Shown: in pieces, positions 38 through 21,981 of the stretch
Layout: each line of letters opens with the position of its first letter
How positions within the stretch are numbered: the first letter of the stretch is position 1
Assembly: GCA_021816965.1 (NCBI GenBank)
Contig: JAKAWU010000009.1
Location: 1-34,584, forward strand
Reading direction: 5' to 3'
DNA length: 34,584 bases
Origin: Thermoplasmata archaeon
Lineage (GTDB): Archaea; Thermoplasmatota; Thermoplasmata; Thermoplasmatales; Thermoplasmataceae
Program-made: the position numbers and the translations under genes
Notes under the pieces: generated by a model
Told to the model about the DNA's origin: nothing
The model's database searches: none
The model's input: the letters and a program-made list of their open reading frames with translations, nothing else

Positions 38-344
38 CTACCGAACTTGATTGGAGGGGTAGGCGCCCTCTGTGACCCAAAGTCTATACGTGGGGATGAC
101 TTCCTGGCCAGGTAAACCTGGCCTCTGTGAAGCTTTCAATGCCCGATGAAATTTCGCACCAGTAGATCGGAGGTCATATGATCATGAATCAAAGGAATCA
201 TGGTCATATGTCTGTCTGAAAATCCGCCAGGTCCGGAAGGGAGCAACGGTAATCAGAACTTACGGTGCTTCTGGAGAGCGGGGTTGAGGGAATTGAAGGG
301 CAAACTTCACAGGACGTCAGGCCCGAACCAGGTGTGTTCGGTAT
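38..344 (+). ncRNA. Archaeal SRP (7S) RNA
   Basis: Domain IV signature CCAGGTCCGGAAGGGAGCAACGG at ~229-251. Terminal helix TACCGAAC (39-46) pairs perfectly with GTTCGGTA (336-343). Helix-6-like hairpin around 174-211. AT-rich TATA-like sequence at ~8-18. Boundaries estimated from the closing helix. Confidence 0.9.
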
Positions 345-5270: not shown

Positions 5271-5287
5271 ATAAGCGAGTGGGAATT

Positions 5288-5307
5288 CCCCTTTCGCAAG
5301 AGAGGGG
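5288..5307 (+). repeat. Left-end hairpin of the IS200/IS605 element (8-bp stem, GCAA loop)
   Basis: CCCCTTTCGCAAGAGAGGGG folds with one G-T wobble. Confidence 0.7.
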
Positions 5308-5354
5308 GTGAAAGCGAGCGAAATGTTTATGCTATATGGATTATTACCATAACT

Positions 5355-5777
5355 ATGCCCTACGAACTGGATAAAGGTGCGCATTCAGTACATTCATTAT
5401 CCTACCACTTCATCCAGGTCGTGAAATACAGGAAGAAAGTATTCATCAATGATGCCATTGTGGATCTTCTTAAGACAAAGACAAGGGAAATTGCTGAAAC
5501 GTTCAATGTTGATGTACTTGAGATAGAATGCGATAAAGATCACTTCCACATGCTTTTCAAAGCTTCACCGTTACTCAACATACCGCAGTTCATCAATGCT
5601 GTAAAGACAATAACATCAAGGGAAATACAGCGAAGATTTCCCGATGTTAAGAGAGAACTGTGGAAAGGGAAATTCTGGGCACCCTCATACTTTCTTGCAA
5701 CATCAGGGCAGGTTACGCTTGATGTCATGAAAAGATATGTGGATTCTCAGGAGGTAAAACGCAATGAGAACCTTTAG
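5355..5777 (+). CDS. tnpA: IS200/IS605 family Y1 HUH transposase
   Basis: 140 aa; HUH motif (CDKDHFHMLF) and C-terminal catalytic Tyr region (VTLDVMKRYVDSQ). Confidence 0.95.
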   Translation: MPYELDKGAHSVHSLSYHFIQVVKYRKKVFINDAIVDLLKTKTREIAETFNVDVLEIECDKDHFHMLFKASPLLNIPQFINAVKTITSREIQRRFPDVKRELWKGKFWAPSYFLATSGQVTLDVMKRYVDSQEVKRNENL

Positions 5778-7005
5778 GTTCAGGATATATCCGTCGGATG
5801 CGCAGATCGGCATCCTGAACTCCACCCTCGATCTCTGCCGTGAATTCTACAACGCAATGCTTCAGCAGCGGATATACGCTTACAGATCCGGAAAAAAGGT
5901 AAACTACTTTTCACAGCAGGACGAAATACCTGAGATAAAGAATGCATTTCCGGAATACCGAAGCATCCACTCGCTTGTCGTACAGGACGTTGCAAGGAGA
6001 CTGGATAAGGCATACGACAACTTCTTCAGAAGGATAAAAGAGAAAAAGAACGGGAAAAGCACAAAGGTGGGATTTCCAAGATTCAAATCCGGGGACAGGT
6101 ATAATTCCATCACATACACGCAGTCTGGATTCAGGATACTGGACAACGGTCATGTGTGGTTATCAAAGATCGGTAAAGTGAGGATGTTCATGCACCGATC
6201 CGTCACGGGAGAGATCAGGACGCTTTCAATAAAGCGTGATTCCGTGGGGGACTGGTTCATATCCATCACTACGGATCAATACATGGGTGGTGGAACCGAA
6301 GCATGGGGAGAGAGGAACGAGGAAGAGCCCTATGTCAATTCCCCTGAGTTCACAAATCCTGCAGGTATAGATCTCGGTCTCAAGGCACTGATCACAACAA
6401 GCGGCGGAGAGCAGATCGAGCCCCCCCGTTTCCTGAGAAAATCGGAGAGGATACTCAAGAAAGCGCAGAGGAATCTGTCCAGAAAAAAGAAAGGATCTGG
6501 AAAGCGGAAGAAGGCAGAGAAAAGGGTCGCCATAATCGACCGGAAGATTGCGAGGCAGAGGGATGATTTCACACATAAGCTCTCCAATAAGCTTGTCAAT
6601 GAACATGATCTGATTGCGCTTGAGGATCTGAACATTGCAGGAATGGTGAAGAATCACCACCTGTCAAAGAGTATAGAGGATGCATCATGGAACAGGATCA
6701 TCCAGTATACAACGTACAAGGCTGAAAGTGCTGGTGCTGTTGTTGTACTGGTAGATCCCATGCATACGTCACAGAAATGCTCAAGGTGCAGCAACATAAA
6801 GCATGATCTGAAACTATCGGATCGCATATATCATTGCGATATCTGTAAGCATACAATGGATAGGGACCTGAACGCCGCAATAAATATCCGGAGTGCCGGA
6901 TTGATCGCTGTAGGGAGGGGCACTCCCGAATTCACGCCCGTGGAGATCAGATCAATACCCGCGAGGGCAAATCAGGTCGTTGAAACGGGAAGCTCCCTGC
7001 GTTAG
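5764..7005 (+). CDS. tnpB: RNA-guided nuclease TnpB (IS605 OrfB)
   Basis: 413 aa; RuvC residues in GIDLGLKAL, IALEDLNIAGM and MDRDLNAAINI; zinc finger CSRC...CDIC; 14-nt overlap with tnpA. Confidence 0.95.
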   Translation: MRTFRFRIYPSDAQIGILNSTLDLCREFYNAMLQQRIYAYRSGKKVNYFSQQDEIPEIKNAFPEYRSIHSLVVQDVARRLDKAYDNFFRRIKEKKNGKSTKVGFPRFKSGDRYNSITYTQSGFRILDNGHVWLSKIGKVRMFMHRSVTGEIRTLSIKRDSVGDWFISITTDQYMGGGTEAWGERNEEEPYVNSPEFTNPAGIDLGLKALITTSGGEQIEPPRFLRKSERILKKAQRNLSRKKKGSGKRKKAEKRVAIIDRKIARQRDDFTHKLSNKLVNEHDLIALEDLNIAGMVKNHHLSKSIEDASWNRIIQYTTYKAESAGAVVVLVDPMHTSQKCSRCSNIKHDLKLSDRIYHCDICKHTMDRDLNAAINIRSAGLIAVGRGTPEFTPVEIRSIPARANQVVETGSSLR

Positions 7006-7040
7006 CTGGGGGAGGATGTCACAGTCGCAGTTTAGAAAAA
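6900..7040 (+). ncRNA. Predicted omega (reRNA) covering tnpB 3' end and RE, with guide from the host right flank (7021-~7040)
   Basis: Position by analogy to characterised TnpB systems, where the scaffold is the tnpB 3' end/RE and the guide is the adjacent flank. 5' boundary not determinable here. Confidence 0.4.
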
Positions 7041-19928: not shown

Positions 19929-20118
19929 TTTTTCTTTTTGAAGGGGGGCCCCTTACCCGGAATAGTGATAAAAGTGGGCACAGTTATGGTATGAGGGAAT
20001 CCATTTATCAATCTCATGTTTTCAATTATACTGAAACTTCCCAAGGAAAGATGGTTTCTGGAAACAGGAAGACAATTCGGGGAAACACGACAGATGGTTA
20101 TGGGTTATGATGTTACAT

Positions 20119-20191
20119 GGTTCAATGAATACATGCCTGTGTGCACGGGAATGTCAGCAACAATACCTTTCCTGCAGGGAGAGGTAGTTGA
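20119..20191 (+). mobile_element. Degenerate IS605-like right-end copy (copy B)
   Basis: GGTTCAATGAATACATGCCTGTG...AGCAACAA...CAGGGAGAGGTAGTTGA aligns with 20952-21025. Confidence 0.55.
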
Positions 20192-20359
20192 AAGTGCCTG
20201 ATTATTGATATTTCATATAGACTCTGTTGTTTTGAAGCATAGTAATAACTGAATACAAATATCTTTCATAGGATTTCAATCAATTATGCGAGAATTTCTC
20301 CCGCAAAGGAAGAGGAATATTAAAATTGTATAATCTGTTTCTTTTGTGATGAAATCGTT

Positions 20360-20623
20360 TTGATTTTAAAACTTAAAGTTGGAAAAAATTGATATGTAAT
20401 AATCCCAAAGGCCATAAGAGAAGCTGCAGGAGTGGAGGAAGGGGATGAATTGATTGTTACACTGAATGATGGAATAACACTGACACCTGCTAAGAGATTC
20501 AACAGGGAGGCCTTTGAAAAAGCAGCCGAGAAACATAGAAGAACAATTTTCTCTCTCAGGGATGCAACATATCCTGTATCTCACGAAGTTTCAAATTATT
20601 CAATGGAGGATGAATCTGACTAA
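20360..20623 (+). pseudogene. vapB: AbrB/SpoVT-type VapB antitoxin with in-frame stop
   Basis: Frame reads LILKLKVGKN*YVIIPKAIREAAGVEEGDELIVTLNDGITLTPAKRF; TGA at 20390-20392 sits where this family usually has Gly (GGA), one substitution away. Confidence 0.8.
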
Positions 20624-20660
20624 CCTGTTCATCGATACCAATCTCCTGGTTTATCTGATG
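20610..20660 (+). pseudogene. vapC: 5' fragment of PIN-domain VapC toxin gene
   Basis: MNLTNLFIDTNLLVYLM, first PIN aspartate motif; interrupted at 20658-20661. Confidence 0.8.
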
Positions 20661-21025
20661 TGAGCGTGAAGACCCCTTGACCTGGAAAGGTGATGAATGC
20701 GAACCTTCTAATAATCCCATTCAATGAATGTTCTGTCCACACCTGAAATGGTAAGGCACTCTCCTGAAGAGTAAGACGGTTAAGTTAGATAGTTCGCAAG
20801 AACACATTGGTTACAGCGGCATTTTCTCCATAAGTAGAAGGGATACACGCCTCAAGACCTCTGCTGGAACCAGGCTGTGGAGCAGTGCCCGAAAGGGATA
20901 ATGAATAGTCTCCTTCCCCTGGCAGGGGAATGTCAATCAGCCAATCGTTGCGGTTCGATGAATCCATGCCCACGGGCATGAGGGAGACCAGCAGCAAGCC
21001 ACTTCGTCAGGGAGGGGTAGTTGAC
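20658..21025 (+). mobile_element. 368-bp non-autonomous IS605-like element (copy A) inserted in vapC
   Basis: Flanked by ATG at 20658 and ATG at 21026; removing 368 bp restores the PIN reading frame. 3' end GGTTCGATGAATCCATGCCCACGGGCATG...CAGGGAGGGGTAGTTGAC shared with copy B. No full tnpA/tnpB inside. Confidence 0.7.
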
Positions 21026-21243
21026 ATGAATACTCCAGGAAAGGATTATGACAAGTATATCTCTTATTATGAAGATCAATTGAGAGACAACAGGTTGTAT
21101 ATTAACATAATTGTGCTTGACGAACTGTTATACATCAGTCAGAGTAAATACAAGATTCCATACGGGGATACCTTTGAATTCATTGAGTCAATGATTCTAC
21201 CTTTTGTTAATATGATTCCACTGGATCAGGAAGATTACGGAAT
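21026..21243 (+). pseudogene. vapC: 3' fragment of VapC, missing the C-terminal PIN region
   Basis: MNTPGKDYDKYISYYEDQLRDNRLYINIIVLDELLYISQSKYKIPYGDTFEFIESMILPFVNMIPLDQEDYG; PIN similarity ends where the convergent methyltransferase gene begins. Confidence 0.75.
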
Positions 21244-21981
21244 ATTCGCTTTCAGGAAATCAATTCTCTTTTTTGCAATTTCATAATATTCAGTATTTTT
21301 TTCAATACCTATGGAGTTCCTTTTAAGTGACTCTGCTACAACAGAGGTTGTTCCGCTGCCAAGAAACGGATCTAAAATCGTGTCACCTTCTTTTGAGGAA
21401 GATAAGATTATCCTTTCAAGGAGGGCAATTGGTTTCTGTGTCGGGTGCTCACCAAATTCTTTTTCTTTTTTTGGAGTTAAAGGTATTTCCCAGACATTTC
21501 TCATCTGTTTCCCATTATTCATTCTCTTCATTTCTTCATAATTGAAGATCCATCTCTCTCTTGAATCATTTTTCACACTCCATATGAGATGTTCAGTGCT
21601 TTCAGTGAACATTCTGCAGGTAATATTCGGCTGGGCATTTGGTTTGAACCATACTATACTGTTATTTATCTTCACATTCAGGTGCTGGAGGATGAAACCT
21701 ATCTGGTATATATTGTGAAATGACCCACTCACCCAGAAACTTCCTCCACTTTTCAGGGTTCTGAGCGATTCGGATATCCAGTCAAGATTAAACTTAAAAA
21801 GATCATCTTTCTTGAAAATATCCCATGTTTCCTGTAAGGTGATGTGTTTGCTGTATTTCCATCCCAGCCCATTTTTCTTTGCCAGCCCATAGGGTGGATC
21901 AGCATATATAATATCAACTGAGGAATCTGGGATTTCTTTCAATATTTCCAGGCAATCGCCAAGATAAAGTTCATGATTCAT
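21235..21981 (-). CDS. DNA adenine-N6 methyltransferase, beta-class order (DPPY before FLGSGTT)
   Basis: DIIYADPPYG at N-term; HPTQKPIALLERIILSSSKEGDTILDPFLGSGTTSVVAESLKRNSIGIE. Confidence 0.92.
   Translation of the reverse strand: MNHELYLGDCLEILKEIPDSSVDIIYADPPYGLAKKNGLGWKYSKHITLQETWDIFKKDDLFKFNLDWISESLRTLKSGGSFWVSGSFHNIYQIGFILQHLNVKINNSIVWFKPNAQPNITCRMFTESTEHLIWSVKNDSRERWIFNYEEMKRMNNGKQMRNVWEIPLTPKKEKEFGEHPTQKPIALLERIILSSSKEGDTILDPFLGSGTTSVVAESLKRNSIGIEKNTEYYEIAKKRIDFLKANIP

What the first reader, a model, noticed from the sequence alone, without database searches (positions are those of the whole stretch)
20658..21025. 368-bp non-autonomous IS605-like element inside a vapC toxin gene
MNLTNLFIDTNLLVYL-M stops at TGA 20661, and MNTPGKDYDKYISYY...VLDELLYISQSKYKIPYG resumes at 21026. 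Removing 368 bp gives a continuous PIN domain (..NLLVYLMNTPGKDYDKY..). The element lacks complete tnpA or tnpB but ends in a conserved RE/omega-like 3' region. It could be a mobilised minimal (guide-RNA-only) derivative or an internally deleted tnpB element.
Basis: partly seen in the sequence, partly recalled or inferred. Interest (0 to 1): 0.72.

Follow-up and report, generated by a model that had tools for sequence, protein, structure and literature searches.

The report
Protein-free transposon carrying a guide-like RNA
A 371-base jumping element with no protein gene has inserted into an archaeal toxin-antitoxin gene; most of it encodes an undescribed, strongly conserved structured RNA that resembles an enlarged version of the guide RNA used by TnpB, the ancestor of CRISPR-Cas12, and probably relies on proteins made elsewhere in the cell.

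Summary
The insertion is real. Its exact limits are 20655-21025 (371 bp, not 368), directly 3' of TTTAT. Uninterrupted vapC orthologues in nine other genomes read ...VY|MNTP..., which fixes both ends.

It is a multicopy, protein-free IS605/IS1341-type element. Its ends match intact tnpB elements in the same genome. Two ~140-bp end-only copies also exist.

The interior is not a tnpB remnant. Bases 20735-21025 encode a ~290-nt RNA with 14 helices and a pseudoknot, supported by strong covariation: 31 of 70 pairs show double changes, and 90 double-change cells compare with 23 in shuffles. Rfam gives no match. Relatives occur in 28 of 117 genomes of the order, in three further families of the class and in one Hodarchaeota genome. 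All are protein-free and lie between IS605-type ends.

The 3' ~95 nt equals the right end of tnpB elements and tracks the host genome's own tnpB (1 of 5040 permutations as good). The 5' ~200 nt is an expansion that tnpB copies lack.

Best reading: a PATE-like element carrying an enlarged omega RNA, moved by TnpA in trans and used by TnpB in trans. Use by TnpB is inferred. Insertions are mostly intergenic, which argues against an intron.

The parts
20650..20654 (+). TTTAT target site / presumed transposon-associated motif (TAM)
   Evidence: TTTAT followed by C precedes the left end in most LE1-type copies in this and other genomes; the empty site in vapC relatives ends in TAT/TAC just before the insertion point.
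20655..21025 (+). Whole protein-free IS605/IS1341-type element, 371 bp
   Evidence: Limits fixed by vapC orthologues without the insert; further copies in the same genome.
20655..20704 (+). Left end (LE1) with subterminal hairpin (CCCC 20673-20676, loop, AAAGG 20686-20690; decayed here)
   Evidence: Shared with the tnpB elements on C35 and C74, the minimal copies on C61 and C34 and a lone left end on C64.
20735..20872 (+). 5' RNA domain: three-way junction (P1 20735-20739/20786-20790, two inner hairpins, conserved AAGGCAC and ACGGUUAAG strands), a GUUC/GAAC hairpin, then a long branched stem
   Evidence: Model R1 built from 23 sequences; model alignment A4 of 32 sequences has 164 double-change cells against 44 in shuffles. 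Absent from tnpB-bearing copies.
20873..20931 (+). GGCUG strand (20873-20877) of the GGCUG/CAGCC stem, plus extra hairpins that lie in its loop
   Evidence: Alignment A1 helices 8-11; in tnpB copies the same stem has a loop of only about 8 nt.
20932..21025 (+). Right end and omega-RNA-like scaffold; pseudoknot GUCAAU 20932-20937 with GUUGAC 21020-21025
   Evidence: Pseudoknot covaries (A-U to G-C) across homologues; same sequence ends the tnpB elements and tracks the host genome's own tnpB.
21026..21041 (+). Presumed guide segment (about 16 nt of flanking vapC DNA immediately 3' of the right end)
   Evidence: Inference by analogy with ISDra2 reRNA, whose last ~16 nt come from flanking DNA (PMC8612924); not tested here.
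20610..20654 (+). vapC 5' fragment (interrupted PIN toxin of a toxin-antitoxin pair)
   Evidence: Matches the N-termini of uninterrupted vapC orthologues in other genomes.
21026..21286 (+). vapC 3' fragment, itself truncated at its 3' end
   Evidence: PIN domain PF01850, E 0.028, below cut-off; 53-72% identical to orthologues over the first 67-74 aa.
5355..7005 (+). Complete IS605 element (tnpA 5355-5777, tnpB 5764-7005) with a left end of similar design; possible source of TnpA in trans
   Evidence: Y1_Tnp E 2e-37; OrfB_IS605 and TNB domains; left-end comparison.

Best explanation
The feature is a non-autonomous, protein-free member of an IS605/IS1341-type (tnpB-only) transposon family, comparable to archaeal PATEs. 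SHOWN: it has the family's left end, right end and TTTAT target; it inserted without target duplication into vapC; and it carries a ~290-nt RNA conserved as structure across many archaeal genomes, whose 3' third is the tnpB right-end RNA. INFERRED: a Y1 transposase (TnpA) encoded elsewhere excises and inserts it as single-stranded DNA. The RNA is transcribed, probably from a promoter in or just after the left end, through the right end into flanking DNA. A TnpB of the matching subfamily (such as that on contig C35) binds the RNA in trans. The complex cuts element-free sites (TTTAT plus the flanking guide sequence), so that repair copies the element back. The extra 5' domain probably stabilises the RNA or improves TnpB binding once the RNA no longer has to double as coding sequence.
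For: Copies and ends. Exact boundaries from vapC relatives. RNA conservation and covariation with shuffle and slide controls. Spread within and beyond the order; Hodarchaeota copy with its own LE hairpin and a compensated pseudoknot (GTCAAT/ATTGAC). The right end of RNA elements matches the tnpB right end of the same genome, best in 6 of 7 genomes and as good in only 1 of 5040 permutations. TnpB copies also have a hairpin 5' of the GGCUG stem, where the RNA elements have their long stem. Matching TnpB subfamily, intact in some genomes with the conserved RuvC/zinc-finger region. TnpA present in the window's own genome and in 9 of 13 RNA-bearing genomes tested. A+T peak 21-32 nt upstream of the RNA start, where an archaeal TATA box would lie. 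ISDra2 TnpB uses a right-end RNA with ~16 nt of flanking DNA as guide: PMC8612924.
Against: No transcription, TnpB binding or cleavage data. Shared right ends are also expected if the element is only mobilised by TnpA and the RNA does something else. Some genomes with the RNA lack a close TnpB in the assembly: G099 (99% complete) has no TnpB match, and G001 and G113 have only weak ones. Some lack any Y1 transposase: G350 (99% complete, 8 copies) and G085. The fold of the window copy alone is no more stable than shuffles (z -0.08), so the structure rests on covariation. The window copy has several substitutions that weaken pairs, so this copy may be decayed.
Confidence: 0.62

Rival explanations
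1. Plain PATE/MITE: only the ends matter, TnpA moves the element in trans, and the interior is passenger DNA without function.
For: End-only ~140-bp copies exist and lack the RNA domain (C61, C34, G056:C90, G111:C79), so the RNA domain is not needed for mobility.
Against: Compensatory changes throughout a 290-nt structure across many genera and several families are not expected of passenger DNA.
Confidence: 0.08
2. IStron-like element: the 5' domain is a self-splicing intron that removes the element from the host transcript and spares the interrupted gene.
For: Layout (upstream structured RNA, downstream omega-like end) resembles IStrons, and ORF-less IStrons are known (PMC4227781). The window copy lies in sense inside a gene.
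Against: No group I or II intron match in Rfam at E up to 5. Nearly all other copies have no open reading frame entering from both sides. The element ends in C, not the terminal G of group I introns. The survey found no archaeal IStrons. The vapC gene is truncated anyway.
Confidence: 0.05
3. The RNA serves a different, unidentified protein (or represses TnpB/TnpA) and shares only the right end with tnpB elements because both use the same transposase.
For: RNA elements persist where no close TnpB is found (G099; only weak matches in G001 and G113). The 5' domain has highly conserved unpaired strands typical of a protein- or ligand-binding site.
Against: The pseudoknot and the GGCUG and GUUGC stems of the TnpB right-end RNA are retained and covary; no other gene accompanies the element in any copy examined.
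Confidence: 0.22
4. Internally deleted tnpB element: the interior is decayed tnpB sequence.
For: Deleted tnpB relics do exist nearby: the ORF at 20016-20201 joins a TnpB N-terminus-like stretch to a right-end-like stretch.
Against: The interior matches the ends of tnpB elements only; it is conserved as a separate RNA in genomes with different left ends.
Confidence: 0.02

Closest known systems
PATEs (palindrome-associated transposable elements) of Haloquadratum walsbyi (PMC3119063)
   Same: Archaeal, transposase-free, IS605-derived, near-terminal palindromes, no terminal inverted repeats or target duplication, moved in trans.
   Different: PATEs are described as fused transposon termini; here ~290 nt of conserved structured RNA sits between and into the ends. 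The ~140-bp copies on C61 and C34 fit PATEs better.
TnpB omega RNA / reRNA of ISDra2 and IS1341-type elements (PMC8612924; archaeal sotRNAs, Rfam RF02656/RF02657 as cited in PMC12558985)
   Same: RNA ends at the transposon right end, with flanking DNA as the presumed guide; same right-end sequence as tnpB elements of the same genome.
   Different: Not overlapped by a tnpB gene; about 200 nt of extra 5' structure; no Rfam match.
ORF-less IStrons (PMC4227781)
   Same: Protein-free IS605/IS607-related element dominated by a structured RNA.
   Different: No group I intron features, mostly intergenic, archaeal.
RAGATH-18 reRNAs of IS607 TnpB (PMC11061315)
   Same: A conserved structured RNA used as a TnpB scaffold; 64% lie next to a TnpB, so part of them do not.
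   Different: Bacterial, IS607; RAGATH-18 motif about 73 nt; no similarity detected here through Rfam.

Membership tests
IS200/IS605 (IS1341-type) transposon, non-autonomous member (PATE) | Same ends as an autonomous or tnpB-bearing family member | tested here: met
   Left end shared with C35, C74 and C64; right end 96% identical to the C35 tnpB element
IS200/IS605 (IS1341-type) transposon, non-autonomous member (PATE) | Insertion 3' of a short fixed target, without target duplication or terminal inverted repeats | tested here: met
   TTTAT before most LE1 copies; vapC relatives without the insert show no duplicated bases; no inverted repeat pairs at the ends
IS200/IS605 (IS1341-type) transposon, non-autonomous member (PATE) | Excision and insertion by Y1 TnpA | not testable with these tools
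   TnpA genes exist in the genome but activity on these ends is untested
TnpB omega RNA (reRNA) | Right-end RNA scaffold with pseudoknot, ending exactly at the element boundary | tested here: met
TnpB omega RNA (reRNA) | Overlaps the 3' end of a tnpB gene in cis | tested here: not met
   No tnpB in this or any other copy carrying the 5' RNA domain
TnpB omega RNA (reRNA) | Binds TnpB and guides cleavage of TAM-flanked DNA | not testable with these tools
   Needs biochemistry or in vivo interference assay
IStron / group I or II intron | Matches a group I or II intron covariance model | tested here: not met
   No Rfam match at E up to 5 on 20600-21060
IStron / group I or II intron | Insertions within genes tolerated by splicing | tested here: inconclusive
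   Most of 37 copies are not inside an open frame; splicing itself not testable
Classical MITE | Terminal inverted repeats and target duplication | tested here: not met

The most novel reading that the evidence does not exclude
The enlarged RNA defines a class of RNA-only mobile element in archaea whose 5' domain has an activity of its own (a ribozyme, or an RNA that takes over part of TnpB's task or blocks TnpB), so that the element persists without any cognate TnpB, as in the near-complete genome G099.
Probability: 0.08. Interest if true: 0.92.

Novelty: new variant of a known kind. Interest (0 to 1): 0.68.

Why it matters
If right, TnpB guide RNAs can separate from their nuclease gene and evolve as independent, protein-free mobile elements with an elaborated scaffold, a natural parallel to the later split between Cas12 nucleases and their guide loci. 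It gives a ready-made natural experiment on what an omega RNA becomes once it no longer has to code for protein, a new RNA family with strong covariation for annotation, and possible improved scaffolds for compact TnpB editors. It also means that copies annotated as junk IS fragments in archaeal genomes can be functional RNA genes.

Tried and rejected
Single-sequence folding gave no excess stability. Rfam at gathering and at E up to 5 gave nothing for this region. Plasmid and phage collections: no match. The viral-contig pattern scan gave six hits, none confirmed by the RNA model. One bacterial hit (L208) sits in coding sequence and was dismissed. Model R2 gave no match in the Hodarchaeota genome, and in that phylum the motif pattern found only the one copy (1 of 228 genomes); that copy is accepted on its downstream right end and compensated pseudoknot, with lower confidence. 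R1 hits in G069 (L123) and part of those in G049 are weak and not relied on. Internally deleted tnpB, intron, classical MITE and passenger-DNA readings were considered and set aside for the reasons listed. No structure prediction was run, because no protein lies in the element.

Full report
OBSERVATION. The vapC reading frame stops at TGA 20661 and resumes at ATG 21026. A search of the window's own genome (G000, 1.36 Mb, 77 contigs, 86% complete) with 20600-21100 gives twelve places. One is a 97% copy on C51, one a 77% copy on C43, and the rest match only the left or right end.

EXACT LIMITS. The vapC 3' part has orthologues in ten other genomes of the family. Nine loci without the insert were read. 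All nine pass directly from ...VY (TAT or TAC) to MNTP or INTP, with no extra codon. The inserted segment is therefore 20655-21025, 371 bp, immediately 3' of TTTAT 20650-20654, without duplication. In the sister genome G056 a right end abuts the same vapC codon (L199), so the insertion is either shared by descent or was made twice at the same site. The two vapC flanks of the window were not joined; natural relatives served instead. The window's vapC 3' part is also truncated, so the gene was probably already lost.

FAMILY OF COPIES. The same left end (GTGAGCGGGAAGACCCC-hairpin) and right end (GUCAAC...GUUGAC) bound several kinds of element in this genome: an intact tnpB-only element (C35, 401-aa TnpB whose stop codon lies in the last four bases of the element), a broken one (C74), a truncated one (C43, first end), three ~370-bp RNA elements (C16, C51, C43) and two ~140-bp end-only elements (C61, C34). 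The last resemble the PATEs described in Haloquadratum (PMC3119063).

THE INTERIOR IS AN RNA. The interior (20706-20911) matches 28 of 117 genomes of the order, in 13 genera, as a block that stays constant while the left end changes (LE1 or LE2). An alignment of 23 copies (A1) and RNAalifold show compensatory changes. A 14-helix structure including a pseudoknot keeps 92.8% of cells paired; 31 of 70 pairs have double changes, and 90 double-change cells compare with 23 in shuffles, with no shuffle reaching the observed value. Sliding the partners drops pairing to 32-51%. A model alignment of 32 sequences including two further families gives 164 double-change cells against 44 (this alignment leans towards the model's structure). 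Rfam has no match at E up to 5. The fold of the window copy alone is not more stable than shuffles, so the claim rests on covariation.

ARCHITECTURE. The 5' domain starts with a three-way junction: a closing stem, ACC...GGU and CUC...GAG hairpins, and conserved unpaired AAGGCA and ACGGUURAAG. A small hairpin and a long branched stem follow. Then comes a GGCUG/CAGCC stem whose loop contains extra hairpins and the 5' strand of the pseudoknot GUCAAC/GUUGAC. Last are the right-end hairpins. The tnpB elements contain the GGCUG/CAGCC stem with a loop of about eight bases, the pseudoknot and the right-end hairpins, and a 9-bp hairpin in coding sequence just upstream of GGCUG (110 of 117 cells paired), in the place of the long stem. 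The element RNA thus looks like an omega RNA enlarged at its 5' side and in one loop. That homology of position is an inference from order and shared motifs.

SPREAD. Model R1 finds it in 17 of 390 genomes of the phylum and model R2 confirms this with better scores for the distant ones: family f1, another family of the order (f5), and families f7, f9 (eight copies) and f12 of the class. In copies of f7, f9 and f12 the RNA lies between an IS605-like left-end hairpin and a right end ending in ...TTGAC or a near variant, without a tnpA or tnpB gene. A pattern scan of GTDB genomes names Thermoplasmata MAGs, a Thermoplasma sp. and one Hodarchaeota MAG. The Hodarchaeota copy (L202 2712-2922) has a left-end hairpin, a right-end hairpin and a compensated pseudoknot GTCAAT/ATTGAC. 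It scores only weakly with the model (not found), so I hold it with less confidence.

LINK TO TNPB. Fifteen of 16 RNA-bearing genomes searched have a TnpB match, many of the C35 subfamily at 61-81% identity (47% in G350), some intact. In seven genomes with both kinds of element, the right end of the RNA element is most similar to the right end of the tnpB element of the same genome in six, and only 1 of 5040 reassignments (the true one) is as good. In G093 both share the same loss of an inner hairpin. This fits use of the local TnpB, but also fits shared transposase or gene conversion. TnpA genes are present in 9 of 13 RNA-bearing genomes but not in G350 (near complete) or G085.

INTRON RIVAL. 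Of 37 copies examined, almost none has open frames entering from both sides, the ends do not fit a group I intron, and no intron model matches. IStrons were not found in archaea in the published survey (PMC4227781).

EXPRESSION. A+T content peaks 21-32 nt upstream of the RNA start over 36 copies, as for an archaeal TATA box. This is suggestive only, because many copies are related.

CONCLUSION. Identity as a protein-free IS605-type element: near certain. Conserved structured RNA: near certain. RNA acting as a TnpB guide in trans: likely, about 0.6. The finding is a new variant of a known kind: a PATE-like element with a covariation-supported, enlarged omega RNA that is not in Rfam. I found no paper in the library describing it, though most subscription journals are missing from that library.

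Noticed in passing
window 20016-20201: Relic of another element of the tnpB family: an ORF in which a TnpB N-terminus-like stretch (ETGRQF) runs directly into a right-end-like stretch (FNEYMPVCTGM...GEVVES); a true internally deleted tnpB copy, just downstream of an intron-containing tRNA gene.
   Followed up: partly
window 5278-7020: Complete IS605 element with tnpA and tnpB; its left end (GCGAGTGGGAATTCCCC-hairpin) resembles LE1, and a second complete copy lies on contig C13.
   Followed up: partly
L055, L058, L059, L056 (genus g4 genomes): Degenerate single remnants of the RNA sit at the same place upstream of a ribosomal protein S6e-like gene in several related genomes: an old shared insertion.
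   Followed up: partly
G350 (L118, L131, L168-L170): At least eight RNA elements in a near-complete genome with no detectable Y1 transposase.
   Followed up: partly
G091 contigs C34, C47, C50, C51: Four near-identical RNA elements, three lying at or near contig ends: recent mobility and assembly breaks at the repeat.
   Followed up: no
window 20432-20623: MazE/AbrB-like antitoxin fragment (vapB) upstream of the interrupted vapC; its start appears decayed.
   Followed up: no
window 39-343: Archaeal SRP RNA (Rfam RF01857, 162 bits).
   Followed up: no
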